From NCBI RefSeq assembly GCF_029457495.1, contig NZ_CP120361.1:2248001-2312000 (forward strand): a stretch of 64,000 nucleotides of DNA, in the 5' to 3' direction. Within the stretch, counting starts at the first letter, position 1, and each line of letters starts with the position of its first letter. The stretch comes from Chelativorans sp. AA-79 (GTDB taxonomy: Bacteria; Pseudomonadota; Alphaproteobacteria; Rhizobiales; Rhizobiaceae). Positions 41,529 through 59,044 of the stretch are shown here, in pieces. Below the pieces are notes generated by a model that saw only the letters and a program-made list of their open reading frames with translations, was not told the DNA's origin and did no database searches. The translations under genes and the position numbers were made by a program.

Positions 41529-44045
41529 ATGAAGAGCGAGGCGCGCGCGGTCGTCATCGGGGGAGGGGTGGTCGGCGTCTCCACCCTCTATCATCTCGCG
41601 AAGAAGGGTTGGTCGGATGCCGTGCTCGTCGAGCGAAGGGAATTGACTTCCGGCTCCACCTGGCACGCGGCAGGCCTCCTGCCGCTCTTCAACATGAGCT
41701 ACTCGGTCGGCCAGATCCACAAATATTCGGTGAAGTTCTACCAGGAGCTTCAGCGCGAGACCGGCATGAATGTCGGCTTCACCCAATGCTCGAACATCCG
41801 CCTCGCCCGCACCAGGGACCGCTGGGACGAATATATGTATTACGCGGGCATCGCAGAGACGATCGGCGTCCCGGTCAACATCCTCACGCCCGAACAGGTG
41901 AAGGAGATCTGGCCGCTCTGCGAGACCGACGGCCTCCTGGGAGCGATCCAGCATCCCGATGACGGCTATATCCAACCGGCCGATCTGACGCAGGCATTGG
42001 CGAAGGGCGCGCGCGACCTGGGTGCTGTGATCCAGCGCAACACCACGGTCACGGCGATCGAGCAGCAGCCGGATGGACGGTGGCTGGTGAAGACCGACAA
42101 GGGCGACATCCTCACCGAGCACGTGGTTTCCGCCACCGGCAACTTCGCCAGGCTGACGGGAAGGATGGTCGGGCTCGACGTGCCGGTGATTCCCGTCGAG
42201 CACCAGTATATCGTCACCGAGCCGCACCCGGCGATCCTGGAGCGCAAGCGCCAGGGCATGCCGGAGATGGGCGTGCTGCGCGAAAGCGATTGCTCCTGGT
42301 ACATGCGCGAGGAGAATGGCGGGCTGCTGCTCGGTCCCTATGAGAAGGGCGCGCCGTGCTGCTATGTCGACGGGCCGTCCGAGGACAGCGAGTACGAGCT
42401 GTTCCAGGAGGATCTCGAGCGGCTCATGCCGCATGTCGAGACGGCCATCGCGCGCGTGCCGGCCTTCGGCGAGGTCGGCATCAAGAAGATCTATAACGGT
42501 GCCATCGCCTATACGCCCGACGGTTCGCCCATCATCGGGCCGGCGCCGGGGCTCAAGAACTTCTGGCTCAACGAGGGCCACTCCTTCGGCATCACGGCCG
42601 CCGGCGGGGCCGGCTGGCAGCTCGCCGAATGGATCGTCGAAGGTGAACCGTCCATCGACATGATGGGTGTCGACCCGCGCCGCTTCGGCCCTTACGCGAC
42701 GGAAGGCTACCTCCGCGAGAAGAACGAGGAGGCCTATGCCAACGTCTTCACCGTGCACTATCCGGATGAGGAGCGGGCGGCGGCGAGGCCGCTCAGGACC
42801 ACGCCCTGCCACGGCCGCATGAAGAGGCTCGGTGCGGTCTTCGGCTCCGTCTACGGCTGGGAGCGGCCCAACTGGTTCGCGCCCGAAGGATACGAGGTGC
42901 CGGAGGAGGAACTGGGCGTCGGAGCGGACGTGCTCATGAAGCACAACCACGCTGCTCCGCTTGAAGATGGCCGCATCGTGGAAAAGTGGTCGTTCCGCCG
43001 CTCGAACTATTTCGAGCATGTCGGGAACGAGGTGAGGAACACCCACGAGAATGTCGGCCTGCTCGACATGTCGGCCTTCGCAAAATGCTGGGTGAGCGGA
43101 CCGGGTGCCGAAGCCTGGCTCAACCGCATCTTCGCCAACCGCATCCCGAAGAAGGACGGCCGCATCGCGCTCTGCCATTTGCTCACCAAGGATGGCGGCG
43201 TGCGGTCCGAATTCACCGTCTATCGGCAGCCGACAGGGTTCTATCTCGTCTCGGCCGGCGCCTATGAGGCGCATGACCACGACGTCCTGAACAAGCTCCT
43301 GCCAAAGGACGGTACTGTCGCCATGTTCCCCTTCACCACGCATTGGGGCGTCCTGGTGCTGGCGGGGCCGAAGAGCCGGGATTTGTTGAGGAAGCTCACC
43401 CGCGCCGACCTCTCCAACGCTGCCTTCCCGTGGCTTTCCGGCAGGCGCATCGATGTCGGACCCGCCACGGCGCATGCGCTGCGCGTCAACTTCGTCGGTG
43501 AACTCGGCTGGGAACTGCACCATCCGATCGAGATGCAGAACGCCATCTTCGATCACCTGATGGAAGCCGGCGCGGAGTTCGGGATAAAGCCCTTCGGCAT
43601 CCGTGCCATGACCTCGATGGCGATCGAGAAGAGCTACCGGCTCATCCCGCGCGAACTGTCCATCGAATATTCCGCTTGGGAAAGCGGCCTCGACCGCTTC
43701 GTGAACCTCGACAAGGGGGACTTCATCGGCCGGGAGGCTTTGGTCCGCCAGAGGCAGGAGGGGCTCGGCCGGAATTATGTGACGCTCGAGGTCCATGACG
43801 TGGCCGACGCGGATGCGCGCGGCTCGGAGGCGGTCTACCGCGACGGCAGGCTCGTCGGCCGCGCCACCCATGGCGGCTATGGCTGGCGCGTGGGAAAGAG
43901 CCTCGCGCTCGCCATGGTGCGGCCCGATTGCGCGACCGAGGGCACAGGGCTCGAGATCAGGATCCTCGGAAAGCTCCACCCGGCCACCGTGATCGGCGAG
44001 AGCCCGTTCGATCCGCAGAACGCTGCTCTGCGGGCGGATGGCTGA
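41529..44045 (+). CDS. FAD-dependent dimethylglycine/sarcosine dehydrogenase with GcvT domain
   Basis: An 838-aa N-methyl-amine dehydrogenase predicted to oxidise dimethylglycine or sarcosine, passing the one-carbon unit to tetrahydrofolate. The N-terminal FAD/DAO domain (1-400) has GGGVVG at 11-16 and TSGSTWHAAGLLPL, whose His46 corresponds to the covalent FAD histidine of mammalian DMGDH. The C-terminal half (about 430-838) is the folate-binding GcvT domain plus its barrel. The start at 41529 was chosen (MKSEARAVVIGGG). It is the obvious downstream partner of a betaine demethylation system; a sarcosine dehydrogenase is an equal possibility. Confidence 0.9.
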   Translation: MKSEARAVVIGGGVVGVSTLYHLAKKGWSDAVLVERRELTSGSTWHAAGLLPLFNMSYSVGQIHKYSVKFYQELQRETGMNVGFTQCSNIRLARTRDRWDEYMYYAGIAETIGVPVNILTPEQVKEIWPLCETDGLLGAIQHPDDGYIQPADLTQALAKGARDLGAVIQRNTTVTAIEQQPDGRWLVKTDKGDILTEHVVSATGNFARLTGRMVGLDVPVIPVEHQYIVTEPHPAILERKRQGMPEMGVLRESDCSWYMREENGGLLLGPYEKGAPCCYVDGPSEDSEYELFQEDLERLMPHVETAIARVPAFGEVGIKKIYNGAIAYTPDGSPIIGPAPGLKNFWLNEGHSFGITAAGGAGWQLAEWIVEGEPSIDMMGVDPRRFGPYATEGYLREKNEEAYANVFTVHYPDEERAAARPLRTTPCHGRMKRLGAVFGSVYGWERPNWFAPEGYEVPEEELGVGADVLMKHNHAAPLEDGRIVEKWSFRRSNYFEHVGNEVRNTHENVGLLDMSAFAKCWVSGPGAEAWLNRIFANRIPKKDGRIALCHLLTKDGGVRSEFTVYRQPTGFYLVSAGAYEAHDHDVLNKLLPKDGTVAMFPFTTHWGVLVLAGPKSRDLLRKLTRADLSNAAFPWLSGRRIDVGPATAHALRVNFVGELGWELHHPIEMQNAIFDHLMEAGAEFGIKPFGIRAMTSMAIEKSYRLIPRELSIEYSAWESGLDRFVNLDKGDFIGREALVRQRQEGLGRNYVTLEVHDVADADARGSEAVYRDGRLVGRATHGGYGWRVGKSLALAMVRPDCATEGTGLEIRILGKLHPATVIGESPFDPQNAALRADG

Positions 44046-44142
44046 CATCCTCCCGGCTGCAATCGCGCAAATGTGAACGGAGCCGAGCGGTTTGTCACAC
44101 GCCGTGAATTGCCGCCGGCTCCGCCTCACGTAAACTCCTCCC

Positions 44143-44964: not shown

Positions 44965-44979
44965 GCCGCGACCACGGCT

Positions 44980-45978
44980 CTACGCGGCCACCAGGTGCTT
45001 GCGGTCGTGACGTTCCTGCTGGGGCGAGCGCGCATAGACCTCGCGATAGCATTTGGAGAAATGCGAGGCGGAAACGAAGCCGCAGGCGACCGCCACTTCC
45101 ACCACCGGCATGGTGGACTGGATCAGGAGGTGCCGCGCCCGGTCGAGCCGGATTTCCAGATAGTAGCGGGCGGGCGAGCGGCCCATCTCCTGGCGGAAGA
45201 GGCGCTCGATCTGGCGGCGCGAAAGCCCCACGGCAGCGGCGATCTCCACCAGCGAGAGAGGTTCCGCCAGATTGGCCTCCATCAGTTCGATAATGGTGAG
45301 CACCTTCGAATTCTGCACGCCGAGCCGCGCCCTGAGCGGCAGGCGCTGGCGGTCGGAGGGGCTTCTGACGCGATCCGTCAGCATCTGCTCGCAAACGCGG
45401 TTGACGAGACCGTCGTCGAAATCCTCGCCGATCAGGCGGAACATCATGTCCATGGCCGCCGTGCCGCCGGCGCAGGTGTAGATGTTGGAATCGATCTCGA
45501 AGAGATCGGCAAAGACGTTGACTTTCGGAAACGCCTCGGCGAAGCCCGGCAGGTTCTCCCAATGGATCGCGCAGCGCTTGTCGGCAAGCAGGCCGGCGGC
45601 GGCGAGAATGTGTGCCCCGGTGCACAGGCCGCCGAGCGCCACGCCGCGGTTATACTCCTCGCGCAGCCAGGCGAAGGCCGACCTGTTGCCATAGGATTCC
45701 ACGTCGAGCCCGCTGCAGACGATCACCATGGTCGGCCGGTCGCTGCCGATCATCTTCTGCCGCTCTTCCGCGAGCGAGGTGTGGACCGTGAGTTCGACCC
45801 CGTTCGAGGCGCGCACCGGATTGCCGTCGGCGCTCGCCAGGCGCCAGCGATAGGCCTCGTAGCCCAGCATCCGGTTGGCCGAGCGCAGCGGCTCCAGCGC
45901 TGTCGCAAAGGCGATCATGGTGAAATCCGGGACCAGGAAGAAAACCAGTGACCGCTTGAGCTGCCGTTCGTCCCGCAT
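44980..45978 (-). CDS. glxA: GlxA-type AraC transcriptional regulator
   Basis: A 332-aa activator with an N-terminal DJ-1/PfpI-like amidotransferase-fold domain (about 10-190; motifs FFLVPDFTMIAFATALEPLR and GGLCTGAHILAAAG) and a C-terminal AraC helix-turn-helix pair (about 225-325; LAEPLSLVEIAAAVGLSRR and VACGFVSASHFSKCYR). Related proteins (GbdR, CdhR) control betaine, carnitine and dimethylglycine catabolism in Pseudomonas. Its location next to the DMG/sarcosine dehydrogenase fits such a role. A GTCGC(T)AAC motif upstream may be autoregulatory. Confidence 0.9.
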   Translation of the reverse strand: MRDERQLKRSLVFFLVPDFTMIAFATALEPLRSANRMLGYEAYRWRLASADGNPVRASNGVELTVHTSLAEERQKMIGSDRPTMVIVCSGLDVESYGNRSAFAWLREEYNRGVALGGLCTGAHILAAAGLLADKRCAIHWENLPGFAEAFPKVNVFADLFEIDSNIYTCAGGTAAMDMMFRLIGEDFDDGLVNRVCEQMLTDRVRSPSDRQRLPLRARLGVQNSKVLTIIELMEANLAEPLSLVEIAAAVGLSRRQIERLFRQEMGRSPARYYLEIRLDRARHLLIQSTMPVVEVAVACGFVSASHFSKCYREVYARSPQQERHDRKHLVAA

Positions 45979-46271: not shown

Positions 46272-46282
46272 GGCCTGCCCTT

Positions 46283-46610: not shown

Positions 46611-47510
46611 ATGAACGCTCCCCTGAACCATCCTCTGCCGCTCTTGGAACTGGACGTGCTGCGCACCTTCGTGGCCATCGCGGAGACCGGCAGCTTCACG
46701 GCCGCGGCCAACGCCGTATTCCGCACGCCTTCCGCGGTTTCCATGCAGATCAAGAAGCTGGAGGACCAGCTCGGCCGGCCCGTCTTCGTGCGCGATGCGC
46801 GTTCGGTTTCGCTCACCTCGGATGGCGATATGCTGCTCAGCTATGCGCGGCGGCTGCTTGCCCTCAACCGGGAGGCGGTCTCCAAATTCGTGATGCCCGA
46901 TATCAGCGGCATCGTCCGGCTCGGATCGCCCGACGATTTCGGCGAGCGCGTGCTGCCGAGCGTGCTCAAGCGCTTCGCACAGACGCATCCGGCGATCGCG
47001 GTGGACGTGGTGATCGACCAGAGCGTCAATCTCCGCAAGCGCATGGCCGCGCGCCAGCTCGACATCACGCTGATGACCTGCTCGGACGAACTGATGCAGT
47101 CGGGGGTCGAGATCCTTCTTTCCGAGCCCATCGTGTGGGCGGGCGCGAAGGGCGGGTGCGCGTATATGCGAGAGCCGCTTCCCGTCTCGTTGTGGGAGGA
47201 AGGGTGCGCTTGGCGCGCCGCCGCAGTGACGGCGCTTTCGAAGTACAACCGGGAGCACCGCATCGCCTATATGAGCGCACACACGGCCGGCCAGCGGGCG
47301 GCGATCCTGTCCGATCTCGCCATCGCGCCCCTGCCCAAGTCCTTCATCGGCGGGGATCTCGTGGAGCTCGGGCCGAAGGACGGGCTGCCCGAACTGGGCA
47401 ATTATCATATCGGCATGGTCGTGGCCCCCGATGCCTCGGCGCCGGTGCGGGCGGCGGCCGACCATATCCGCGCGGCTTTCGACATGTTCAACGAGACCGG
47501 CCGGTTCTAA
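46611..47510 (+). CDS. LysR family transcriptional regulator
   Basis: A 299-aa LysR regulator. The N-terminal helix-turn-helix (about 14-72) contains FVAIAETGSFTAAANAVFRTPSAVSMQIKKLE, and the substrate-binding domain spans about 95-295. The start at 46611 was chosen over 46473. It is divergent from a DUF1127 gene and behind a LysR-type dyad, so the DUF1127 gene is its most likely target. The inducer is unknown. Confidence 0.9.
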   Translation: MNAPLNHPLPLLELDVLRTFVAIAETGSFTAAANAVFRTPSAVSMQIKKLEDQLGRPVFVRDARSVSLTSDGDMLLSYARRLLALNREAVSKFVMPDISGIVRLGSPDDFGERVLPSVLKRFAQTHPAIAVDVVIDQSVNLRKRMAARQLDITLMTCSDELMQSGVEILLSEPIVWAGAKGGCAYMREPLPVSLWEEGCAWRAAAVTALSKYNREHRIAYMSAHTAGQRAAILSDLAIAPLPKSFIGGDLVELGPKDGLPELGNYHIGMVVAPDASAPVRAAADHIRAAFDMFNETGRF

Positions 47511-47519
47511 GCGCCGGAA

Positions 47520-47544
47520 GGAACCTCGCCGCAACTGCTCCATT
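47520..47544 (+). promoter_or_regulatory. Putative EcfG/RpoE2-type promoter of ligD polymerase gene
   Basis: GGAAC (47520-47524), 16 bp, then CATT (47541-47544), the same GGAAC-N16-CATT pattern as before the stress small RNA at 19776. The ATG follows 36 bp later. In Sinorhizobium, DNA end-joining genes are known to be RpoE2-dependent. Confidence 0.4.
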
Positions 47545-47580
47545 GTTGTATGGTGTCCGGGGCGGCTCGAGGAGGCGGCC

Positions 47581-48498
47581 ATGCAGCGCGAAAACCGCGA
47601 GACCATTGCCGGCATTTCCCTTTCGCACCCGGACAAGGTGCTTTTCGACGCGCAGGGACTGACCAAGGCCGACATCGCCAGGCACTATGTGCGCGTGGCG
47701 GAGCGGATGCTTCCGGCGGTGAGGAACCGCCTCATCAGCCTCGTGCGTTGCCCGGACGGCCGCAGCAAGGAGTGCTTTTTCCAGAAGCATGCGGGCAGGG
47801 GCTTTCCCAAGGCCGTGAGGCGGCAGGAAATCACCGAGAAGGACGGCGGCACCGCCGAATATCTTTATGTCGGCGATCTCGCGGGCATTGTCGCCGGCGT
47901 GCAGATGAACACGCTGGAATTCCACATCTGGGGTTCGCGGATCGACTCGCTGGAGAAGCCCGACCGTCTGGTCTTCGACCTCGATCCCGCCGAGGGGCTC
48001 GCTTTCGGCGATGTGCGGCAGGCCGCCCTCGATCTGCGCGACCGGCTGGAAGGTCTCGGCCTCAAATCCCTGCCACTGGTGACGGGCGGCAAGGGCGTGC
48101 ATGTGGTGGCGCCGCTTGCCCGCCGCACCGAATGGCCGCAGGTGAAGGCCTTCGCCCGCGCGGTCGCAAACCGCATGGGCGAGGAGGAGCCGGAGCGCTT
48201 CCTCGCGCAGGCCTCGAAGGAAAAGCGCAAGGGCCGGATCTTCATTGACTGGCTAAGGAACGAGCGTGGAGCGACCGCCATTGCGCCCTATTCGACGCGC
48301 GCGCGGCAGGGCGCCCCGATCGCCATGCCCGTTTCCTGGGAGGAATTTGGCGGGCTTTCGGCCGCCAACACATTCCGCATCCAAGACATGGGAGCGCGAA
48401 TGACGGCGCCCGATCCCTGGGCGGAGGCGGAAGGCTGGCGCCAGGGGATCACGAAGACGATGCTGGAGAAGATCGGGGCGGATGCCTATGGGGGGTGA
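47581..48498 (+). CDS. Stand-alone LigD-type polymerase/primase domain
   Basis: A 305-aa archaeo-eukaryotic primase-type polymerase corresponding to the PolDom of bacterial LigD, with no ligase or phosphoesterase domain. The catalytic metal pair is in RLVFDLDPAEGL, the nucleotide-binding TGGKGVHVVAPL follows, and IDWLRNERGATAIAPYS carries the third acidic region. It would add ribonucleotides or fill gaps at double-strand breaks. No ku or ligase gene is in the window. A general-stress-type promoter lies upstream. Confidence 0.9.
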   Translation: MQRENRETIAGISLSHPDKVLFDAQGLTKADIARHYVRVAERMLPAVRNRLISLVRCPDGRSKECFFQKHAGRGFPKAVRRQEITEKDGGTAEYLYVGDLAGIVAGVQMNTLEFHIWGSRIDSLEKPDRLVFDLDPAEGLAFGDVRQAALDLRDRLEGLGLKSLPLVTGGKGVHVVAPLARRTEWPQVKAFARAVANRMGEEEPERFLAQASKEKRKGRIFIDWLRNERGATAIAPYSTRARQGAPIAMPVSWEEFGGLSAANTFRIQDMGARMTAPDPWAEAEGWRQGITKTMLEKIGADAYGG

Positions 48499-48562: not shown

Positions 48563-50620
48563 CTATCGCCTTCGCCTCGCCTCCCGCTCCTCGCGCGAGC
48601 GGCGGCGGGGGGCTTGCGTGCCGCCTTCGGCCAGCACCTTCCGGCGCGGCAGCTCGACCTGCCGGCTGAGCTTCGGGAAGGGATCCACCTTGTTGGGGAG
48701 CGCCATCGCGTGGACGAAATGCTCCTGGAATTTCGGCTCCAGAGCGGTCTCGATCTTCTCGATACGGCGAACCGTCTCCTCGATCTCGCGGCGGTGATTG
48801 CGGTTCAGGAGCGCCATGCGCGCGCCGGTGCCGGCGGCGTTGCCGACGGCGGAGACATTCTCCAGCTCGCAATCGGGGATCAGCCCCAGCACCATCGCAT
48901 AGGTCGGGTCGATGAAGGAGCCGAAGGCCCCGGCGAAGCGGATCACATCCACCGTCTCGATGCCCTGCTTCTCCATGAGCAGCCTCGTGCCGGCATAGAG
49001 CGCCGCCTTGGCGAGCTGGATGGCGCGCACGTCGTTCTGCGTGACGGTGATGCGCGGCTCTTCCTCGCGGAGCACATAGGAGAAGGTGCGGCCCTGTTCG
49101 ATGATGCGCGGGCTCCTCGCGGCCAGGGCGCCGTCAATCACGCCGTCCTCGGAGATGAGGCCGCAAAGATACATCTCCGCCACCACCTCGATGATACCGG
49201 AGCCGCAAATGCCGGTGACGCCGGTGGTGGCAACGGCCTCCGCGAAGCCCGGATCGTCGGACCAGAGCTCCGAGCCGATGACGCGGAAGCGGGGCTCCAG
49301 CGTTGCCCGATCGATGCGCACACGCTCGATGGCGCCGGGGGCCGCGCGCTGGCCGGAAGAGATTTCCGCGCCCTCGAAAGCCGGACCGGTGGGCGAGGAG
49401 GCGGCGACGACGCGCTGCCGGTTGCCCAGGACGATCTCGGCATTGGTGCCGACGTCGACGATGAGCATCATCCTGTCCTGACGATGCGGGCCTTCCGACA
49501 ATGTCACCGCGGCGGCATCCGCACCCACATGGCCGGCGATGCAGGGGAGCATGTAGAGCCGGGCGCCCGGATTGAGCGCGAGCCGCAAATCGTCCGTCCG
49601 CGCCTTCACCGCGCCGGAGACGGCGAGCGCAAAGGGCGCGCCGCCCAGCTCCGTCGGGTCGATGCCGAGGAAAAGGTGGTGCATGATGGGATTGCCGACG
49701 AAGACGGCGTCGAGAATGTCGGCGCGCTCGACGCCACCCTCCGTCGCCACCCGGTCGACGAGCTTCGATATCTCCAGCCGCACGGCCTTGGTCATCGCCT
49801 GCCGTCCGTCCGGGTTCATCATCACATAGGAGACGCGGCTCATCAGGTCTTCGCCGAAGCGGATCTGCGGGTTCGACGCCCCCGCCGAGGCCACCACGCG
49901 CCCGGAAAGCAGCGAGACCAGATGCATCGCAATGGTCGTGGAGCCGATGTCGCAGGCAAGCCCGTAGGCCTCGTTCTTCAGCCCCGGCCAGAGCGCGATG
50001 ATGCGCGCGGCATCTTCATCCTGGTCGTGATGGACGGCGGCGGTGACGGCCCATTCGCCTTCGCGCAGGATCTTCTGGACTTCGGGCAGGAGGTGGAGCT
50101 CCACCTCCAGGCGATCGTATCCCCAGTCCTTCTGGAGCTGGACCTTCAGTCGGTCGACATCGCCCAGCGGGTGATGCATGTCGGGTTCGGGCACCTCGAC
50201 ATAGCGCAGATTCACCGCCGGATGCCGCTCGATCACACGGCTGTCGGCGTCCTTGCGCACCACTTGCGCGTTGATGATGGCATCCTGCGGCACGTCGACG
50301 ACGAGGTCGCCTTCGATGGTGGCCGAGCAGGAAAGACGGCGCCCGGGAAGAAGCTCACGCTTCTCCGCATAGCGCGCTTCCCTGGGGCCGGGCGAGGAGA
50401 TGTGCTCTTTCGCGGATGAAATCTTATGCTTGGCGAAATGGCCTTCCTGCACCTCGATCTGGCATCGCCCGCAGGTGGCCCGCCCGCCGCACACGCTCTC
50501 CACATAGACGCCGAGCTGACGCGCGGCATCGAGGACGGTCGTGCCTTTCGGGAAACGCCCGCGTTTGCCCGAGGGCATGAAGAGAACGAGGGGGTCCGAC
50601 ATATTGGGCGGGGCGTTCAT
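48563..50620 (-). CDS. RACo-type corrinoid activator (ASKHA, 2Fe-2S; DUF4445)
   Basis: A 685-aa ATP-dependent activator that re-reduces Co(II) corrinoid to Co(I) so methyltransferases can resume. The N-terminal 2Fe-2S domain (1-105) has Cys44, Cys50, Cys53 and Cys98 (motif VCGGRATCGRCQIEV). A linker is followed by an ASKHA ATPase domain (about 200-640) with DIGSTTIAMHLVSL and MLIVDVGTNAEIVLGN (phosphate motifs). The C-terminus ends in a polybasic tail (RRRSREEREARRRR). Related proteins are RamA/RACo. Here it would serve the MttB/corrinoid system encoded nearby. The plus-strand ligD gene converges with it. Confidence 0.92.
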   Translation of the reverse strand: MNAPPNMSDPLVLFMPSGKRGRFPKGTTVLDAARQLGVYVESVCGGRATCGRCQIEVQEGHFAKHKISSAKEHISSPGPREARYAEKRELLPGRRLSCSATIEGDLVVDVPQDAIINAQVVRKDADSRVIERHPAVNLRYVEVPEPDMHHPLGDVDRLKVQLQKDWGYDRLEVELHLLPEVQKILREGEWAVTAAVHHDQDEDAARIIALWPGLKNEAYGLACDIGSTTIAMHLVSLLSGRVVASAGASNPQIRFGEDLMSRVSYVMMNPDGRQAMTKAVRLEISKLVDRVATEGGVERADILDAVFVGNPIMHHLFLGIDPTELGGAPFALAVSGAVKARTDDLRLALNPGARLYMLPCIAGHVGADAAAVTLSEGPHRQDRMMLIVDVGTNAEIVLGNRQRVVAASSPTGPAFEGAEISSGQRAAPGAIERVRIDRATLEPRFRVIGSELWSDDPGFAEAVATTGVTGICGSGIIEVVAEMYLCGLISEDGVIDGALAARSPRIIEQGRTFSYVLREEEPRITVTQNDVRAIQLAKAALYAGTRLLMEKQGIETVDVIRFAGAFGSFIDPTYAMVLGLIPDCELENVSAVGNAAGTGARMALLNRNHRREIEETVRRIEKIETALEPKFQEHFVHAMALPNKVDPFPKLSRQVELPRRKVLAEGGTQAPRRRSREEREARRRR

Positions 50621-50856: not shown

Positions 50857-51840
50857 CTATCCCCGCCCTATCCGCGCCATGCGTGCCTCGCGGCCGCCGC
50901 GCCGGCGCCCGCCGGCGGAGGCTTGGCCGCCGTTCCCGTTCGAAGACTCCGCCGAAGCGCCGGTGTTCCCCGAGGGCGCGGGCTGATGGTCGCGATAGGT
51001 CATGATCCAGGTCTGGCAGTTGGGGTCCGTACCGTTCAGTACGTTTGCCGCGCGGACCATCTCCATCTCCTGCGGCCGGCAGGGATTCATGATGGCGCTG
51101 GTCATGCCCGCGCCGATGACCATGGGAATGAAGCCCGCATTGATGCCGTGGCGATGCGGCAGCCCGAAGGAGATGTTGGAGAGGCCGCAGGTGGTGTTGA
51201 CCTTCAGCTCCTCGCGCAGGCGGCGCAGCAGTGCGAAGACCTGCTTGCCCGCCGTGCCCATGGCGCCGATGGGCATGACCAGCGGATCCACGACGATATC
51301 GTGTGCGGGTATGCCGTAATCGGCGGCGTGCTGGACGATCTTCTTCGCCACCGCGAAACGCACGTCCGGGTCCTCGGAGATGCCGGTCTCGTCATTGGAA
51401 ATCGCCACCACCGGCACGTCGTATTTCTTGATGAGCGGCAGGATGGCCTCGAGCTTCTCCTCCTCGCCGGTGACGGAGTTCACCAGCGGCCGGCCCTTCG
51501 CCACCTTCAGCGCGGCCTCGATGGCAGCGGAGACCGAGGAATCGATGGAGAGCGGGACGTCGACGAGATCCTGTACGATCTCCAGCGTCTGGACCAGAAG
51601 CGCCGGCTCGGTCGCATTCGGGTCCACCGCCGTCACGCCGGCATTGACGTCGAGCATGGTGGCGCCGGCCGCGACCTGGTCCAGCGCATCCTTCTTCACC
51701 GTCTCGAAATTGCCGGCCACCATCTCCGCCGCAAGCTTCTTGCGGCCGGTGGGGTTGATGCGTTCGCCGATGACGCAAAAGGGCTGGTCGAAGCCGATCA
51801 CGACTTCCCGGGTCGCCGAGGCGACGATTGTGCGGGTCAT
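50857..51840 (-). CDS. mtgA: DHPS-like methyltetrahydrofolate methyltransferase (MtgA type)
   Basis: A 327-aa member of the pterin-binding/dihydropteroate-synthase fold predicted to transfer methyl from the corrinoid protein to tetrahydrofolate. Motifs are GERINPTGRKK, LDVNAG, SIDSS and NTTCGLSNISFGLPHR (pterin-binding). The last 30 residues (HQPAPSGNTGASAESSNG..., then GGRRRGGREARMARIGRG) form an Arg/Gly-rich tail that AcsE/MtgA proteins do not need. A 22-bp palindrome lies 18 bp upstream. The gene is part of the corrinoid methyltransfer set. Confidence 0.87.
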   Translation of the reverse strand: MTRTIVASATREVVIGFDQPFCVIGERINPTGRKKLAAEMVAGNFETVKKDALDQVAAGATMLDVNAGVTAVDPNATEPALLVQTLEIVQDLVDVPLSIDSSVSAAIEAALKVAKGRPLVNSVTGEEEKLEAILPLIKKYDVPVVAISNDETGISEDPDVRFAVAKKIVQHAADYGIPAHDIVVDPLVMPIGAMGTAGKQVFALLRRLREELKVNTTCGLSNISFGLPHRHGINAGFIPMVIGAGMTSAIMNPCRPQEMEMVRAANVLNGTDPNCQTWIMTYRDHQPAPSGNTGASAESSNGNGGQASAGGRRRGGREARMARIGRG

Positions 51841-51857
51841 GCGCAGTCCTCCAAAGG

Positions 51858-51879
51858 GATATAAAGACTTCTTTATGTC
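51858..51879. promoter_or_regulatory. SahR/SamR-like palindrome upstream of mtgA-type gene
   Basis: Arms ATAAAGA and TCTTTAT with centre CT, extended to 10-bp arms GATATAAAGA / TCTTTATGTC with one mismatch. It is nearly identical to the palindrome ahead of the homocysteine methyltransferase gene (59086-59107). The ATAAAGA-type palindrome matches my recollection of ArsR-family SahR/SamR sites on methionine-cycle genes in alphaproteobacteria. It overlaps the mtgA promoter region. Confidence 0.6.
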
Positions 51880-51926
51880 GTTATCTGATCTTTTTCAACC
51901 GGCATCCGCAAGAGGAAGCCGCGCGC

Positions 51927-52229
51927 TCACTCCCCGGCACGGCCGCCCGCCTTGACGAGCGCCTTCAGCTTGTCGTCGGTGAACTCACGTTCGATCGTTT
52001 GCAGCGCCTTGTCGGCTTCCGCTTCCAGATCATCGCTCACGGGCGTGGGATCGCCGCGCCGCCACTCGGCGAGATACGCGTCCGTGTCGCGCGCGCCGAC
52101 GCGCATGGCGCACATGTCGATCGCTTCCGTGAAGCGCAGCGGTAGCTCGCGCTTGGCGCTTGCCCGCCCTTTCTTCACGATGACCTGGGCGGGGATATCG
52201 CGCCAGTAGACGATGATCAGATCGGCCAT
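51927..52229 (-). CDS. 'Virulence factor' family protein (PF13769-like)
   Basis: A 100-aa small protein beginning MADLIIVYWRDIPAQVIVKKG. The conserved WRDIPAQVI segment near the start and AIDMCAMRVGARDTDAYLAEW mark the family named 'virulence factor', whose members are repeatedly encoded beside corrinoid methyltransferases in alphaproteobacteria. No enzymatic function is known. It lies 86 bp upstream of mtgA on the same strand, with the SahR-like palindrome between. Confidence 0.75.
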   Translation of the reverse strand: MADLIIVYWRDIPAQVIVKKGRASAKRELPLRFTEAIDMCAMRVGARDTDAYLAEWRRGDPTPVSDDLEAEADKALQTIEREFTDDKLKALVKAGGRAGE

Positions 52230-52332: not shown

Positions 52333-52950
52333 CTAGAAGATGAAGAAGGCGGCGAGTGCGCCGGCGCTGCCGACAAGAAGCGCGATGACGGCGAGAGACA
52401 GGAGCCCGATCACGACCCCAATACCCAGCAGGAGGCCGTCGCGCTCCGACAGTGCGAGACCCAGGATCGCGCAGGAAAGGGCCGGAAACCAGTTGCCGAG
52501 CGGAATGGGCAGGGTGACGATGGTGGCAAGGAGCAGGGCACAGAGGCCGACCGCGCGCTCCACCTGCCCATGGGCAAAGGGCCAGTAGCGCGGCCGGACG
52601 AGACGCTCCAGCCACTTTATTTTCGGAACGACCTTGCCGATCATGTGCCGAAACTGCTCCGCGCCGACGGATTTCGTCAGGATGGGGCGCGGCAGCCAAA
52701 CGGTGCTGCGTCCGAGCACCATCTGCACGGAGACGAGCAGGAGGGGCACGCCCAGGACCAGCGTGCTGCCCGGCGGCAGCGGAAGCATGTTGATAAGGGC
52801 GAAGAAGACGAGGAGCGTCGCGAAGCTGCGGTCGCCCAGCGCATCGCGCAACTGCTCCACGGTGATCGCCGTCTCCGTGCTTCGCGCAAGCTCTTCGAAT
52901 ATCTGCGACAGCCGTCGTGGCGGCACGCCCGAGGACCGGCTGCCCGACAT
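52333..52950 (-). CDS. exoD: ExoD family integral membrane protein
   Basis: A 205-aa inner-membrane protein of the exopolysaccharide-synthesis ExoD family. The N-terminal soluble region has SQIFEELARSTETAITVEQLRDALGDRS, followed by about four hydrophobic segments from residue 45 on (LVFFALINMLPLPPGSTLVLGVPLLLVS). In Sinorhizobium exoD mutants are alkali-sensitive and affect nodule invasion; the molecular function is not known. The start at 52950 was used; an ATG at 52980 adds ten residues. Confidence 0.85.
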   Translation of the reverse strand: MSGSRSSGVPPRRLSQIFEELARSTETAITVEQLRDALGDRSFATLLVFFALINMLPLPPGSTLVLGVPLLLVSVQMVLGRSTVWLPRPILTKSVGAEQFRHMIGKVVPKIKWLERLVRPRYWPFAHGQVERAVGLCALLLATIVTLPIPLGNWFPALSCAILGLALSERDGLLLGIGVVIGLLSLAVIALLVGSAGALAAFFIF

Positions 52951-53045
52951 CGCCTGGATTGCGCCGCCTTCCGCTTTCAACCTGCCCTACTTCCGATCAT
53001 CTGCTTGTTTTCCGTAGCCCGGCGGGCCTGGGTGAATATAAGGAG

Positions 53046-53627
53046 CTAACGCGCGCGGCGAAACTCCAGGATGTCGAGCTTGGATTCCCGGGCGGGCTCG
53101 GGCAGTTCGATGCGCCACCGGTCCTCCCCGTCGCGATAGACATAGCCGACCTGGTCCGTCTCCGGGCCTGCGCCATATTCCGGAGCCTCGTCCTGCTGGA
53201 CGAAGAAGGAGCCGAGATAGATGAGGCGCTTGTCGCCATCGGTGAAGAACCGGCCCTTGGTGCGCTGGGAGCCCGTGAGCTTTTCGAGCATCCAGCCGGA
53301 CCCGTCATCCGTGACGCGGCAGCGGAACCAGTCATAGATCACCAGGGAGGCCAACCCGCCGGCCTTGATGGTGCGGCACTGCCAGTCTCCGGCCATGTCG
53401 AAGCCGTGGAAGGAAAGGGTGGGGCGGGAAAGGATTTCCTCGAAGGTGGCGACGTCCCGGGTCGATCCTCCCGCCTTCGCCTCGGCGATGGCGGCCCTGC
53501 GCGTCTGCTCGAAACGATCGAGCCGGGCGCTGTCCGTTTTCGTGATGATCTTCAACATCTCGCCATCGGCATGGGCAAGGCCGGTGGCGGCGAAAAACAG
53601 TGCGAAGGCAAGAATTCGAATAAACAT
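53046..53627 (-). CDS. DUF4893 family secreted protein
   Basis: A 193-aa periplasmic protein with a signal peptide (1-17, ending GLAHADG) and the DUF4893 domain. Diagnostic motifs are LDRFEQTRRAAIAEA near the N-terminus, GDWQCRTIKAGGLASLVIYDWFRCR in the centre and VGYVYRDGEDRWRIELPEP at the end. The two central Cys (QCRT and FRCR) could be disulfide-linked. Function unknown. It is followed on the same strand by the ExoD gene, 95 bp away. Confidence 0.82.
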   Translation of the reverse strand: MFIRILAFALFFAATGLAHADGEMLKIITKTDSARLDRFEQTRRAAIAEAKAGGSTRDVATFEEILSRPTLSFHGFDMAGDWQCRTIKAGGLASLVIYDWFRCRVTDDGSGWMLEKLTGSQRTKGRFFTDGDKRLIYLGSFFVQQDEAPEYGAGPETDQVGYVYRDGEDRWRIELPEPARESKLDILEFRRAR

Positions 53628-53708
53628 GAAAAGCTCTTCCGAAACGATGAATCGAGCTATAGCAGCAATTCCGGCCATTTCGCGACCCATAGATCGCGTC
53701 GGCGAGAT

Positions 53709-54335
53709 TCAGGCGGCGCGGGCCGCATTGCGCAGGGCGTCGGCAAGTTCGCCATAACCTGTGAACCGGCGTTCATAGCTGAGGCCCAACAGCCGCGCGG
53801 CATCGCGAGCGACCTTCTCCAGCGCCGGGTCGTCCACTTGCGCCAGGTAAACGAGCTTCTCGTAATTGCCGAAGAAATCCCCGATGAGTTCGGGATGCCG
53901 GTCGAGGCCGAGCGGCTTCAGGAAGAACGCGTCGAACTGCCGGCAGAGGAAATCGGTCATGTAGAAGGAGGTCATGTCCGCCTCCTCGCGGTCCGCGAAC
54001 TGCGCCAGTCCCTGGTAGAAGGCGAAGCAGTGCGGCCCGGCGATGCGCTCGACGCCGTGCTTCTCGCATATGCGGTCGAGCCCGCCACCCGTGCCGCAAT
54101 CGGCATAGCCGACGAAGATGTGGCGATAGCCGTCTTTCTTCGCCCGCTCTATCGCAGTGTCGAGGGCAGGGGCGATGCGGTCGGGATAGTAATGGTATTC
54201 CGCCGGAAGGCATGTGAGTTCGAGATGGTCGAGCCCCAACTGCCCGCGCACGGCAAGCACCTCGCGAGCGATCATGCCGCAGGCGATCACCAGAACCTTT
54301 TCCGTTTCAGCGCGTTTCATTCTCGGCGTTTTCAT
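53709..54335 (-). CDS. DUF1638 family protein (corrinoid-system associated)
   Basis: A 208-aa soluble protein of DUF1638. Conserved motifs are VLVIACGMIAREVLAV, LPAEYHYYPDRIAPAL, VGYADCGTGGGLDRICEKHGVERI, and GPHCFAFY. These supply four Cys and several His that could bind a metal or cofactor. DUF1638 genes recur next to RACo and corrinoid methyltransferase genes in bacteria and methanogens, so a chaperone or cofactor-handling role is plausible but unproven. An alternative start is the ATG at 54320. The corrinoid protein gene is 245 bp upstream on the same strand. Confidence 0.8.
   Translation of the reverse strand: MKTPRMKRAETEKVLVIACGMIAREVLAVRGQLGLDHLELTCLPAEYHYYPDRIAPALDTAIERAKKDGYRHIFVGYADCGTGGGLDRICEKHGVERIAGPHCFAFYQGLAQFADREEADMTSFYMTDFLCRQFDAFFLKPLGLDRHPELIGDFFGNYEKLVYLAQVDDPALEKVARDAARLLGLSYERRFTGYGELADALRNAARAA
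54292..54316 (+). promoter_or_regulatory. Putative EcfG-type promoter of the entericidin gene
   Basis: AGAAC (54292-54296), 16 bp, CGTT (54313-54316). One mismatch to GGAAC-N16-CGTT. It lies 64 bp before the entericidin start, within the 5' part of the divergent DUF1638 gene. Entericidin genes are frequent EcfG targets in alphaproteobacteria. Confidence 0.4.
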
Positions 54336-54580: not shown

Positions 54581-55279
54581 CTAAACCGCGGCGCCGATAT
54601 TGTGCTTGCGCTTCATCAGATCCTTGGCGGTCTCGACCGCCACTGCCGCATCTCGGCAATACGCGTCCGCGCCCACGGCCTTGCCGAATTCCTCGTTGAG
54701 CGGCGCGCCGCCGACGAGCACGATGAAATCGTCGCGGATGCCCTTTTCCTTCAAGGTGTCGATGACGACCTTCATATAGGGCATGGTGGTGGTGAGCAGG
54801 GCGGACATGCCGATGATGTCCGGCTGGTGCTTCTCGATGGCGTCGAGATAGTTCTCCACCGGATTGTTGATGCCCAGATCGATGACCTCGAAGCCGGCGC
54901 CTTCCATCATCATGCCAACGAGATTCTTGCCGATGTCGTGGATGTCGCCCTTCACGGTCCCGATGACCATCTTGCCCTGCTTGGGGGCGCCGGTCTCCAC
55001 CAGAAGCGGGCGCAGTATGAACATGCCGGCCTTCATCGCATTGGCCGAGAGCAGCACCTCCGGCACGAAGAGGATGCCGTCGCGGAAATCCTCGCCGACA
55101 ATGCGCATGCCTTCGACCAGGGCCTGGGTCAGCACGTCATAGGGGGCCCAGCCGCGATCCAGCAGAATGCGCGTGCCTTCCTCGATCTCCTCCTTCAGCC
55201 CGTCATAAAGATCGTCGTGCATCTGCTGCACGAGCTCGTCGTCTGGAAGCTCCGAAAGAATGATTTCGTCGTCGGACAT
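54581..55279 (-). CDS. mtgC: Corrinoid methyl-carrier protein (MtgC/MttC type)
   Basis: A 232-aa corrinoid protein. The N-terminal helical domain (about 15-95) caps the B12 site, and the Rossmann B12-binding domain follows. The axial ligand His is H114 in DIHDIG (112-117), the DxHxxG motif. Then come ALLTTTMPYM and VLVGGAPLNEEFG. It carries the methyl group from the MttB-type methyltransferase to mtgA. It is divergent from the mttB-type gene, with an 18-bp palindrome in the shared promoter. Confidence 0.92.
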   Translation of the reverse strand: MSDDEIILSELPDDELVQQMHDDLYDGLKEEIEEGTRILLDRGWAPYDVLTQALVEGMRIVGEDFRDGILFVPEVLLSANAMKAGMFILRPLLVETGAPKQGKMVIGTVKGDIHDIGKNLVGMMMEGAGFEVIDLGINNPVENYLDAIEKHQPDIIGMSALLTTTMPYMKVVIDTLKEKGIRDDFIVLVGGAPLNEEFGKAVGADAYCRDAAVAVETAKDLMKRKHNIGAAV

Positions 55280-55358
55280 TCCTGGCTCCTGCCTTACGCC
55301 GTCCGGCCATTACCGTCTGCACCTAGATAAGCCGTCCCCGGCCGCTTTCCATAGCCGA

Positions 55359-55376: not shown

Positions 55377-55575
55377 AGGAAAGCGACTGGAACTGCTAAG
55401 CTTTTCGGACAAGTTCAGCGGAATTCGTCTTCGGCGCGGATACCTTTCATGCGCTCCGCTCTTATTGCGACATGTGCTGGCGCTTGCTGAACGTCCGGCC
55501 GCGCGCCCGCGAATAGGATGCGGCCGAATGAGGCGGCACCATCGGGAAGGTATGCCGCGGCCAGGGATCGGAGCC

Positions 55576-57168
55576 ATGAACCAAATGCCTGCGGACGAAA
55601 ACACGGCAGCCGAAGCCACCGAGGCAAGGCGCGGGCGTGGCGGACGGGGCGAACGTGGCGGTGCCGCCGCGCGGCGCGCGGCGCGCAGCGGCGGAGGCCC
55701 CGGCCAGCAGCTCACCTATGTCACGCGAAAACTGCCTGTCTATGAGGTGCTGGGCGAGGAGGGGATCGCTCTCATCGAAGCCAATGCGGATACGGTGCTC
55801 GAGGAGGTAGGCATCGAGTTCCGCGGAGATGCCGAGGCGCTTGCGCTATGGAAGGAAGCCGGCGCCGAGGTGAAGGGCGAGCGCATCCATTTTCCCAAGG
55901 GACTGTGCCGCAGCCTGCTCAGCACCGCGCCCTCCATCTTCACGCAGCATGCGCGCAATCCGGAGCGTTCCGTTCAGATAGGCGGCGACGCCACGGTGTT
56001 CGCGCCCGTCTACGGTCCGCCCTTCGTGCGCGATCTCGACGGCAACCGCCGCTACGCCACGGTGGAGGATTTCCGCAATTTCGTGAAGCTCGCCTATATG
56101 GCGCCCAACATCCACCATTCCGGGGGCACGGTGTGCGAGCCGGTGGACGTGCCGGTGAACAAGCGCCACCTCGACATGGTCTACGCGCATATGCGCTTTT
56201 CCGACAAGCCGTTCATGGGTTCGGTGACGGCGCCTGAGCGGGCGGAGGACACGGTGGCCATGGCGAAGATCCTCTTCGGCGAGGATTTCGTAGACCAGAA
56301 CACCGTGATCATCAGCCTCATCAACGCCAATTCGCCCATGGTGTTCGACGAGACCATGCTGGGGGCGGCGAAGGTCTACGCCCGCCACAACCAGGCGACC
56401 ATCATCACGCCCTTCATCCTGGCCGGCGCCATGAGCCCGGTGACGGTGGCCGGCACGCTGACGCAGGTATTGGCGGAGGTGCTGGCGGGAGCCGCCTTCA
56501 CCCAGCTCGTGCGGCCGGGCGCGCCGGTCGTCTTCGGCACCTTCGCCTCGTCCATATCCATGCAATCGGGCGCGCCCACGTTCGGGACGCCGGAGCCTTC
56601 GCTCGTCTCCTATGGCGCAGCGCAGCTCGCCCGGCGGCTGGGCCTGCCCTTCCGCACGGGCGGATCGCTTACGGCTTCCAAGGTCTCGGACGCGCAGGCG
56701 GCCTACGAAAGCGCCAACACGCTCAATTCCACCATGCTCGCCGGCACGAATTTCGTGCTGCACGCGGCAGGCTGGCTCGAAGGCGGGCTCGTCTCCTCCT
56801 ACGAGAAATTCATGATGGATGTGGACCAGCTCGGGATGCAGCAGCGCATTGCCGAAGGCGTCGATCTTTCGGAGAACGGCCAGGCTATGGACGCGATCCG
56901 CGAGGTGGGACCCGGCAGCCATTATCTCGGCTGCGCGCATACCCAGGCGAATTTCCAGACCGCCTTCTACCGTTCCGCGATCGCCGACAACAATTCCTAC
57001 GAGCAATGGTCGTCCGAAGGGGAGAAGGCGGCGCATCAGCGCGCCGGCCAGCTCGCCCGGCAGTGGCTCGACACCTACCAGGCACCGGCGCTGGACGAAG
57101 CGATCGACGAGGCTCTCAAGGATTTCGTGGCGCGGAAGAAGGACTCCATGCCCGACGCCTTCTCCTGA
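55576..57168 (+). CDS. MttB-family corrinoid methyltransferase (glycine betaine/trimethylamine type, non-pyrrolysine)
   Basis: A 530-aa member of the trimethylamine methyltransferase (MttB) superfamily. No in-frame TAG is present, so it lacks the pyrrolysine of true MttB and belongs with glycine-betaine/quaternary-amine methyltransferases such as MtgB. The TIM-barrel motifs include FVRDLDGNRRYATVEDFRNF, GSVTAPERAED and SMQSGAPTFGTPEPSLVSYG. The N-terminal 45 residues are Arg/Gly-rich (RRGRGGRGERGG). Substrate not proven. The ATG at 55576 is used; an ATG at 55528 would add 16 residues. It is divergent from its corrinoid protein. Confidence 0.88.
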   Translation: MNQMPADENTAAEATEARRGRGGRGERGGAAARRAARSGGGPGQQLTYVTRKLPVYEVLGEEGIALIEANADTVLEEVGIEFRGDAEALALWKEAGAEVKGERIHFPKGLCRSLLSTAPSIFTQHARNPERSVQIGGDATVFAPVYGPPFVRDLDGNRRYATVEDFRNFVKLAYMAPNIHHSGGTVCEPVDVPVNKRHLDMVYAHMRFSDKPFMGSVTAPERAEDTVAMAKILFGEDFVDQNTVIISLINANSPMVFDETMLGAAKVYARHNQATIITPFILAGAMSPVTVAGTLTQVLAEVLAGAAFTQLVRPGAPVVFGTFASSISMQSGAPTFGTPEPSLVSYGAAQLARRLGLPFRTGGSLTASKVSDAQAAYESANTLNSTMLAGTNFVLHAAGWLEGGLVSSYEKFMMDVDQLGMQQRIAEGVDLSENGQAMDAIREVGPGSHYLGCAHTQANFQTAFYRSAIADNNSYEQWSSEGEKAAHQRAGQLARQWLDTYQAPALDEAIDEALKDFVARKKDSMPDAFS

Positions 57169-57343
57169 AGGGAGCCCGCGACAGGCCGGGCTATAGTGGC
57201 CGAAATCATCCGCGAAGAGGTCTGGCGCTCCATCATGCGCCAGATGTGACGCGCCTCCGCGTGGACGCCCGCATTCCATTCCTTTGTGATCGGCTGGCCT
57301 CCGGCTCTGCCCGGCCGGAGGCACCTGGCGCTTGATAAAAGAT

Positions 57344-57361
57344 ATATCTCTTGATAGATAT
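57344..57361. promoter_or_regulatory. PadR-type operator candidate
   Basis: Inverted repeat ATATCT-CTTGAT-AGATAT, 33 bp before the PadR start. It also overlaps a palindrome AGATATATCT. This AT-rich element fits a PadR/NfeR-type auto-operator. Confidence 0.5.
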
Positions 57362-57393
57362 GTCGTATCAAAGTTATTACGCAGGAGAATCCG

Positions 57394-57996: not shown

Positions 57997-58024
57997 GACC
58001 AGACCACTCGCCAGTGGCGGGCCT

Positions 58025-59044
58025 TCAGCCGCGCGAACGGCGGCGTTCGCGGCGGCCGGCACCGGCACTTTCGGCGCCGCTCTGGTTCGCCGCCTTGTTG
58101 CGCATCGGGCCGACGCGGGCTTCGATCTCCTGCACGCTGGGGCGGTGCGCCTTGGCGTGACTGTCGAGCGCCTTGCGCATCGCGGCAAGATGCTCGAAGG
58201 ACGTGCCGCAGCAGCCGCCGACGATCCTCGCCCCGCCGTCGATGGCGAGGCGTACATAATCGGCCATCAGCTCCGGCGTGCCGGAATAATGGATTTCGGT
58301 CCCGCGGAATTCCGGAATGCCGCAATTGCCCTTCACGATGATGGTGCTATCGGGCTTCGCTTCGGACATGTCGAGCAGGGCCGCCAGGATGTCGGGCGCA
58401 CCGACGCCGCAATTGGCGCCGACGGCGAGCGGCTTCTCCTCGATATCGTCCACCACGCCGTGGATGTCCTTCGGCGCCAGGCCCATCATCGTGCGGCCGG
58501 CGGTGTCGAACGATCCCGTATAAGTGTAGGGGAGGCCGACGCGCACGGCGGCTTCCGCCGCGGCGTGAATCTCCTCCGGCGCAGACATGGTCTCGATCCA
58601 GGCCACGTCCGCGCCGCCTGCCTTGAGCCCCTCCATCTGCTCGACAAAGGCTTCCACGGCCTCCTCGTAGGTCATCGCACCGAGCGGCTGCAAAAGCTCG
58701 CCCGTTGGGCCGACGGAGCCTGCCACGATGACGCGCCGGCCGGCACGATCGGCCACGCCGCGGGCAATCTCGGCGGCCTTCTTGTTCAGTTCGAACACAC
58801 GGTCCTGCGCGTGATGCAGCTTCAGCCGCTGGCGCGTGCCGCCGAAGGAGTTTGTGAGGATGATGTCGGCGCCCGCATCGACGAAACCCTGATGCAGCGC
58901 CTCGATCTTCTGCGGCTCGGTCTCATTCCAGAGCTCTGGCGCCTCGCCGGACTGGAGGCCCATCGCGAAAAGATTCGTTCCCGTCGCGCCATCGGCGAGG
59001 AGAACGCCTTTTTCCGCCAGCAGCGCGTCAATCGGATTGTGCAT
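58025..59044 (-). CDS. bmt: Homocysteine/betaine-homocysteine S-methyltransferase family
   Basis: A 339-aa Zn-dependent homocysteine methyltransferase domain without cobalamin domains. The Zn ligands are Cys212 (GANCGVG) and Cys278/Cys279 (GGCCGT). The N-terminal motif is LLADGATGTNLFAMG. It belongs with the rhizobial Bmt group, in which methyl donors include glycine betaine. It ends in a basic tail (GAGRRERRRSRG). A perfect SahR-like 22-bp palindrome lies 42 bp upstream, linking it to methionine-cycle control. Convergent with the PadR gene. Confidence 0.9.
   Translation of the reverse strand: MHNPIDALLAEKGVLLADGATGTNLFAMGLQSGEAPELWNETEPQKIEALHQGFVDAGADIILTNSFGGTRQRLKLHHAQDRVFELNKKAAEIARGVADRAGRRVIVAGSVGPTGELLQPLGAMTYEEAVEAFVEQMEGLKAGGADVAWIETMSAPEEIHAAAEAAVRVGLPYTYTGSFDTAGRTMMGLAPKDIHGVVDDIEEKPLAVGANCGVGAPDILAALLDMSEAKPDSTIIVKGNCGIPEFRGTEIHYSGTPELMADYVRLAIDGGARIVGGCCGTSFEHLAAMRKALDSHAKAHRPSVQEIEARVGPMRNKAANQSGAESAGAGRRERRRSRG

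What the first reader, a model, noticed from the sequence alone, without database searches (positions are those of the whole stretch)
41529..59044. Complete corrinoid-dependent methylated-amine demethylation set spread over 17 kb, coupled to cobamide and methionine-cycle genes
The window contains an MttB-family methyltransferase without pyrrolysine, its corrinoid protein, a DHPS-like THF methyltransferase, a RACo-type activator, a DUF1638 protein, a small 'virulence factor' protein, a homocysteine methyltransferase, a DMG/sarcosine dehydrogenase and a GlxA-type regulator, with cobQ close by. Each part is known from anaerobes or other alphaproteobacteria, but the chain betaine -> dimethylglycine (corrinoid route) -> sarcosine (FAD route) in an aerobic rhizobium-like genome is not, to my knowledge, worked out as a pathway. 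The substrate is inferred.
Basis: partly seen in the sequence, partly recalled or inferred. Interest (0 to 1): 0.75.

Follow-up and report, generated by a model that had tools for sequence, protein, structure and literature searches.

The report
Rhizobial betaine-demethylation and methionine-synthase gene cluster
This stretch holds the rhizobial version of a recently described vitamin B12-dependent enzyme set that probably strips methyl groups from glycine betaine and can also make methionine; the system is known, but it carries a small conserved protein, labelled a virulence factor, whose role appears unstudied.

Summary
In detail: all ten named parts are present. The novelty claim does not. 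Mausz et al. (PNAS 2025, PMC12478193) showed genetically in Ruegeria that MtgC and MtgD serve both betaine demethylation and methionine synthesis, and state that Sinorhizobium meliloti carries mtgBCDE with both reactivation genes. Seven window proteins are 57-91% identical to an S. meliloti cluster, and the set recurs in relatives. Two additions. (1) The set is not complete: the MTHFR genes ("metF2") lying between mtgD and the PF13769 gene in most relatives are missing here. (2) The 100-aa PF13769 "virulence factor" tracks the system: in 142 alphaproteobacterial genomes, 26 of 26 with it have RACo and MttB, and 112 of 116 without it lack RACo; in 70 of 71 named loci its nearest recognised downstream gene is metF2. 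No held paper names PF13769. It is a credible unassigned component, but not universal: J32 and G056 lack it, as does Methanosarcina. The genome has no MetH reactivation domain but a MetE-like gene. Structure prediction could not be run.

The parts
41514..44042 (+). DMGDH/sarcosine-dehydrogenase-type flavoprotein (DAO-FAO_M-GCV_T-GCV_T_C); likely start ATG 41529
   Evidence: Pfam; 57.8% identical to the flavoprotein near the betaine transport genes in the Azoarcus KH32C cluster. Substrate inferred.
44983..45978 (-). AraC/GlxA-type regulator, closest model GbdR (choline/betaine catabolism)
   Evidence: NF052371 372.5 bits, below the cut-off of 480; same place in several genomes of the genus
48566..50620 (-). 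RACo/RamA-type corrinoid reactivase
   Evidence: PF14574, PF17651, PF17650, Fer2; C44-C50-C53...C98
50860..51840 (-). mtgD (mtgA-like): methyl-H4F:corrinoid methyltransferase
   Evidence: PF00809, NF005719 above cut-off; 90.6% identical to the S. meliloti protein
51930..52229 (-). PF13769 'virulence factor' small protein (virF here); candidate unassigned component
   Evidence: Pfam 87 bits; co-occurrence and position
53712..54335 (-). DUF1638 protein, implicated in corrinoid reactivation
   Evidence: PF07796 89 bits; mutant phenotype of the Phaeobacter homologue (PMC5764234, passages)
54584..55279 (-). mtgC: corrinoid protein
   Evidence: PF02310, PF02607; DIHDIG at residue 112; 89.2% identical to S. 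meliloti
55576..57165 (+). mtgB: MttB-family non-pyrrolysine methyltransferase, probable glycine betaine:corrinoid methyltransferase
   Evidence: PF06253; start ATG read; 45.2% identical over 467 residues to the glycine betaine methyltransferase chain 9yce; 81.2% to S. meliloti
58028..59044 (-). mtgE/bmt: homocysteine S-methyltransferase module
   Evidence: NF005718 above cut-off; 75% identical to S. meliloti bmt; best PDB match is a MetH-type homocysteine methyltransferase, not human BHMT
61738..63210 (+). cobQ-like cobyric acid synthase, nearby; start codon not determined
   Evidence: PF07685, PF01656; no cob gene among the eight ORFs scanned just beyond the window

Best explanation
A rhizobial mtgBCDE system. 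MtgB moves a methyl group from glycine betaine to cob(I)alamin on MtgC, giving dimethylglycine; MtgD passes it to tetrahydrofolate (and works in reverse for synthesis); MtgE can pass it from MtgC to homocysteine, making methionine; RACo and DUF1638 return oxidised cob(II)alamin to the active state; the DMGDH-type flavoprotein and a GbdR-like regulator serve the next step and the switch. Shown here: families, motifs, gene order, orthology to S. meliloti. Inferred from other species: every catalytic step, the substrate and the direction of flow. In this genome the dedicated methyl-H4F oxidising genes are missing from the cluster, so methyl-H4F would have to leave through a MetF encoded elsewhere or through methionine. 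The PF13769 protein is most likely an accessory of the methyl-H4F/MetF2-MtgD branch or of corrinoid maintenance.
For: All parts identified. MttB matches a glycine betaine methyltransferase of known structure. RACo, MtgD, DUF1638, MtgC and divergent MttB keep the same order in named relatives: MtgC 76, DUF1638 75, MtgD 71, VirF 71, RACo 64, MtgE 62 of 80, some loci being cut by contig ends. S. meliloti and Azoarcus clusters, the latter with proV, a betaine permease, a betaine-binding protein, an ETF beta gene and a DMGDH-type flavoprotein. The GbdR-LysR-RACo side is conserved in several genomes of the genus. The own genome has no PF02965 (MetH reactivation domain) match, so a split synthase has a role to fill. 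Genetics in Ruegeria and Phaeobacter: PMC12478193 (main-text parts 1-4 of 6 read), PMC5764234 (passages).
Against: No assay in this organism. The closest NCBIfam models for MtgC and MttB score below their cut-offs (219.6 against 370; 280.6 against 525), so the substrate cannot be read from models. No betaine transporter was recognised among the window ORFs scanned (not all ORFs were scanned). A MetE-like gene is present, so the methionine role may be redundant. The metF2 oxidation arm is missing from the cluster. MtgE could act alone as a betaine-homocysteine methyltransferase: Phaeobacter Bmt does so in vitro (PMC12366255, abstract and passages). A glycine betaine monooxygenase elsewhere in the genome was not looked for.
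Confidence: 0.85

Rival explanations
1. Same machinery, different substrate: the MttB protein demethylates another quaternary amine (carnitine, gamma-butyrobetaine, proline betaine, choline) and betaine is not the main donor.
For: MttB-family members in Eubacterium use such substrates (abstracts in the listings; PMC12478193 discussion). Identity to 9yce is only 45.2%; a second MttB type near the cluster in some relatives shows that the family has diversified here.
Against: This type is nearer to 9yce (45%) than seven sequences of the second type are (37-40%). The Azoarcus cluster carries betaine transport genes, though its mttB lies 11.6 kb outside the stretch read. Only one MttB match in this genome, beside a GbdR-like regulator and a DMGDH-type enzyme.
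Confidence: 0.15
2. MtgE is a stand-alone betaine-homocysteine methyltransferase and the corrinoid genes serve a separate reaction.
For: NCBIfam names it betaine--homocysteine S-methyltransferase. Phaeobacter Bmt acted on betaine and DMSP in vitro without THF or cobalamin (PMC12366255, abstract and passages).
Against: The best PDB match is a 5-methyltetrahydrofolate S-homocysteine methyltransferase (144.6 bits); human BHMT scores 46.2 bits (that chain 1lt7 is the human enzyme is recalled). Mausz et al. state that the S. meliloti-type protein lacks the betaine-binding residues of human BHMT; those residues were not tested here.
Confidence: 0.2
3. In this lineage the cluster is mainly a methionine synthase and betaine demethylation is vestigial.
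For: metF2 is missing from the cluster and the second MttB from the genome; no MetH reactivation domain in the genome.
Against: mtgB, DMGDH and GbdR are kept as open frames; a MetE-like gene may already cover methionine; a clear MetF-type gene exists elsewhere (305 bits).
Confidence: 0.2

Closest known systems
MtgBCDE of Ruegeria pomeroyi DSS-3 (Mausz et al. 2025, PMC12478193)
   Same: Same modules: MttB-type MtgB, corrinoid MtgC, pterin-binding MtgD, homocysteine module MtgE, RamA-like and DUF1638 reactivation proteins
   Different: Genes scattered in Ruegeria but clustered here; metF2 next to mtgD in Ruegeria but absent from the cluster here; the word 'virulence' does not occur in the main text of that paper
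Sinorhizobium meliloti mtgBCDE/bmt cluster (read here in strain Ak57, CP090106)
   Same: Same genes; identity to window proteins: MtgD 90.6, MtgC 89.2, MttB 81.2, RACo 76.6, MtgE 75.2, VirF 73.2, DUF1638 57.2%
   Different: S. meliloti has MTHFR_C and MTHFR between virF and mtgD; the window has neither
Split methionine synthase of Phaeobacter inhibens (Price et al. 2018, PMC5764234)
   Same: Separate homocysteine, pterin and B12 modules with RamA-like and DUF1638 proteins (passages)
   Different: Defined by methionine phenotypes; no MttB in the passages seen
MtgABC of Desulfitobacterium hafniense (as described in PMC12478193)
   Same: Non-Pyl MttB-type betaine methyltransferase feeding a corrinoid protein and THF
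   Different: Anaerobe; MtgB 45.2% identical (that 9yce is the D. hafniense protein is recalled, the listing gives only the molecule name)

Membership tests
Aerobic MtgBCDE betaine demethylase / split methionine synthase | PF06253 MtgB without pyrrolysine | tested here: met
   791 bits, no stop inside 55576-57165
Aerobic MtgBCDE betaine demethylase / split methionine synthase | MtgC with B12-binding cap, B12 domain and DxHxxG | tested here: met
Aerobic MtgBCDE betaine demethylase / split methionine synthase | MtgD pterin-binding methyltransferase | tested here: met
   NF005719 401.8 bits against 259
Aerobic MtgBCDE betaine demethylase / split methionine synthase | MtgE homocysteine module with zinc cysteines | tested here: met
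   PF02574; C212, C278 and C279 present; that these are the zinc ligands is recalled
Aerobic MtgBCDE betaine demethylase / split methionine synthase | RACo/RamA-like reactivase and DUF1638 protein | tested here: met
Aerobic MtgBCDE betaine demethylase / split methionine synthase | metF2 (methyl-H4F oxidation) with mtgD | tested here: not met
   No MTHFR_C/MTHFR in the window. Accessory, not a defining enzyme; 10 of 13 genomes of the genus examined, this one included, keep it
Aerobic MtgBCDE betaine demethylase / split methionine synthase | Absence of MetH in the genome (usual, not obligatory) | tested here: met
   No match to PF02965, the MetH reactivation domain, in the own genome; other MetH domains not searched genome-wide
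Aerobic MtgBCDE betaine demethylase / split methionine synthase | Betaine-dependent growth and demethylation | not testable with these tools
   needs mutants
Classical betaine-homocysteine methyltransferase (BHMT) | Betaine-binding residues of human BHMT | not tested
   Residues not aligned here; only scores compared: 46.2 bits to BHMT chain 1lt7, 144.6 to the best match
Pyrrolysine MttB | In-frame amber codon and Pyl genes | tested here: not met
   open frame without a stop; no tRNA-Pyl in the window; genome not searched for Pyl genes

The most novel reading that the evidence does not exclude
The small PF13769 protein annotated 'virulence factor' is, in proteobacteria, not a virulence protein but a dedicated, undescribed component of the corrinoid/folate methyl-transfer system, working with MetF2 and MtgD (for example as a docking or electron-transfer adaptor that lets methyl-H4F be oxidised or the corrinoid be kept active). 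In the alphaproteobacterial sample it is found only in genomes with RACo and MttB; its reading frame overlaps its neighbours' in S. meliloti (MTHFR_C) and Azoarcus (DUF1638 and MTHFR_C); it sits directly upstream of two unlike forms of MetF2; and in a sampled family that I take to be Rhodobacteraceae it stays beside MetF2 and MtgD, 29 to 298 kb from DUF1638.
Probability: 0.6. Interest if true: 0.5.

Novelty: new member of a known kind. Interest (0 to 1): 0.33.

Why it matters
It adds a clustered, reduced form of the aerobic cobalamin-dependent betaine system in a Chelativorans-like genome, a handy setting to test which parts are needed. The new point is testable: a small protein labelled "virulence factor" that tracks this system about as tightly as DUF1638 does has no assigned role in the papers found, and congeners with and without metF2 offer natural variation to find it.

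Tried and rejected
Rejected: that the pathway is unworked (paper found); that the set is complete (metF2 missing); that a cob operon follows the window directly (eight ORFs just beyond the end scanned, none cob); that PF13769 is strictly obligatory (no match in G002, which I equate with J32 from the same MttB contig length, nor in G056; G016 and G052, 85 and 88% complete, also have MttB without a PF13769 match, context not examined); that PF13769 depends on MttB (G043 and G047 have it without an MttB match); that PF13769 depends on DUF1638 (G169, 99% complete, has no DUF1638 match). That C1:1047257 in the own genome is a displaced metF2: it is 32-34% identical to five short MetF2 proteins, left open. 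Searches for solved structures gave no significant match for PF13769 (best E 0.3) and none for DUF1638. A search for CvfC papers listed nothing bearing on this system (10 of 42 listed).

Most of L107-L118 and L121-L136 were picked because of PF13769 or DUF1638 hits, so I do not use them for frequencies; others (83 loci with MtgD; 96 loci with VirF) mix them in, and some genomes occur twice. Fisher values ignore phylogeny, although the 142 genomes are mostly one per family by their labels. The overlap of the 28 and 44 genomes was compared by eye.
Full report
What is there. The window lies in a 5.76 Mb genome whose MttB is closest, among the named records shown, to Chelativorans sp. J32 (91%), followed by Mesorhizobium, Phyllobacterium and Aminobacter; the tool says that records of the genome itself or one very near may be left out. 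Between 41.5 and 59.0 kb there are, in order: a DMGDH/SardH-type flavoprotein, DUF1194, a GbdR-like regulator, a LysR regulator, a LigD primase-polymerase, RACo, MtgD, PF13769, ExoD, DUF4893, DUF1638, MtgC, divergent MttB, PadR and a homocysteine methyltransferase. Motifs expected for working parts are present: DIHDIG in MtgC, four ferredoxin-type cysteines in RACo, C212, C278 and C279 in MtgE, no stop in MttB.

It is the known aerobic mtgBCDE system. Mausz et al. (PMC12478193; I read parts 1 to 4 of 6 of the main text, and passages) show in Ruegeria pomeroyi that mtgC and mtgD mutants lose both betaine growth and methionine prototrophy, and state that in S. meliloti mtgBCDE, both reactivation genes and the cobalamin operon are colocated. 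Price et al. (PMC5764234, passages) had shown the split methionine synthase and its RamA-like and DUF1638 helpers in Phaeobacter. I compared the window with an S. meliloti record: identity is 57 to 91% for seven shared proteins. Of 80 named relatives, MtgC is found near MttB in 76, DUF1638 in 75, MtgD in 71, PF13769 in 71, RACo in 64 and MtgE in 62; some loci are cut by contig ends.

Substrate. The window MttB is 45.2% identical over 467 residues to the glycine betaine methyltransferase chain 9yce, while seven sequences of a second MttB type are 37 to 40% identical to it. That second type lies 8 to 9 kb from the first in 7 of the 80 named loci. In Azoarcus sp. KH32C (Betaproteobacteria) the orthologous genes lie among proV, a betaine permease gene, a betaine-binding protein gene, a GlxA regulator, an ETF beta gene and a flavoprotein 57.8% identical to the window's; its MttB gene is 11.6 kb beyond the stretch read. 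This makes glycine betaine the likeliest substrate, not a proven one.

What is unusual in the window. First, relatives carry methyl-folate reductase genes between mtgD and PF13769: a MTHFR_C plus MTHFR pair, or a short divergent MTHFR. Of the 71 named loci with MtgD, 69 have one of these forms and 2 have none, both titled Chelativorans: J32 (L011) and ZYF759 (L074). In the window's genus, 10 of the 13 genomes looked at, this one included, keep the pair; the window, G002 and G012 do not. L113, from another family of the order, also lacks it. The own genome has one clear MTHFR elsewhere (305 bits) and one weak match (33 bits). Mausz et al. report MetF2 as the most differentially made protein on betaine, so its absence here is a real departure. 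Second, the own genome has no match to the MetH reactivation domain but has a MetE-like gene (PF01717, 518 bits).

The PF13769 protein. In a sample of 142 alphaproteobacterial genomes, PF13769 is in 26, DUF1638 in 25, RACo in 30 and MttB in 30. All 26 PF13769 genomes have RACo and MttB, and 23 have DUF1638; of the 116 without PF13769, 4 have RACo and 4 have MttB (Fisher 1.4e-24 for either, not corrected for phylogeny). The MetH domain shows no positive association (9 of 26 against 68 of 116). In a sample of 299 genomes of the phylum, all 28 PF13769 genomes have DUF1638, while 16 DUF1638 genomes lack PF13769. In 61 close relatives, 31 have both PF13769 and MttB, 2 PF13769 alone, 4 MttB alone, 24 neither. 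Position: within 200 bases of DUF1638 in 16 of 26, and within 10 kb of RACo in 16 of 26; in the 71 named loci that have it, the nearest recognised gene downstream, on the same strand and within 600 bases, is MTHFR_C in 54, short MetF2 in 16 and MtgD in 1. The annotated frames overlap in S. meliloti (with MTHFR_C) and in Azoarcus (with DUF1638 and MTHFR_C). WRDIPxQ, RF..A.D..AM and YL..W motifs are kept in 13 diverse sequences, with variable positions between the named letters and one V for I in the second motif region. Papers: 0 hold "PF13769"; "virulence" does not occur in the main text of Mausz or Price and occurs once in PMC12366255, in a passage not shown. This is an argument from a limited library.

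Against that reading. J32/G002 and G056 have mtg clusters without PF13769, and both also lack metF2 in the stretch examined; the window, G012, L074 and L113 keep PF13769 without metF2. Methanosarcina acetivorans, a control genome, has RACo, MttB and DUF1638 matches but no PF13769 match, and B. subtilis has a PF13769 match without RACo or MttB (control lines). So the protein is not needed for corrinoid reactivation everywhere, and the domain has other uses. Genomic association does not give a mechanism.

The methionine branch. Whether MtgE takes its methyl group from MtgC or straight from betaine is disputed in print: Mausz et al. argue for the first, while purified Phaeobacter Bmt used betaine and DMSP directly (PMC12366255, abstract and passages). 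The window protein scores higher against MetH-type homocysteine domains than against BHMT chains, which leans to the first.

Verdict. Interest is mainly in the unassigned PF13769 protein and the reduced form of the cluster.

Noticed in passing
window 51840-51927: The MTHFR_C/MTHFR (metF2) genes present between mtgD and the PF13769 gene in most relatives are absent; mtgD's start and the PF13769 stop codon are 86 bases apart.
   Followed up: yes
L019:19687, L026:19542, L040:20529, L114:17767 and others: A second MttB type (41-46% identical to the first) lies 8-9 kb away on the other strand in some relatives, beside another DMGDH-like gene; this genome has only one MttB match.
   Followed up: partly
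window 52336-52980 and 53049-53690: ExoD-like and DUF4893 genes sit inside the cluster in many relatives (ExoD 31 of 80, DUF4893 53 of 80) with no link to methyl transfer known to me.
   Followed up: no
alignment A2 (DUF1638): DUF1638 has invariant cysteines at 19, 42, 80 and 103 and invariant histidines at 37, 48 and 102 in 34 sequences, which would suit a metal or cluster site; no solved structure matches.
   Followed up: partly
G000:C1:1047257 and 1055408 (L105): A divergent MTHFR-like gene and a weak Meth_synt_2 (core-MetE-like) gene lie about 8 kb apart in the own genome.
   Followed up: partly
window 47431-48495: A stand-alone LigD-type primase-polymerase sits beside RACo here and in several congeners.
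   Followed up: no
window 32405-33232: A DDE_3 transposase-like gene, the only mobile-element hit (E 1e-10 or better) among the 20 ORFs of the first 41 kb scanned.
   Followed up: no
CP090106.1 (L119): The record is titled S. meliloti Ak57 pSymB but is 3.7 Mb, more like a chromosome; possibly mislabelled (size comparison recalled).
   Followed up: no
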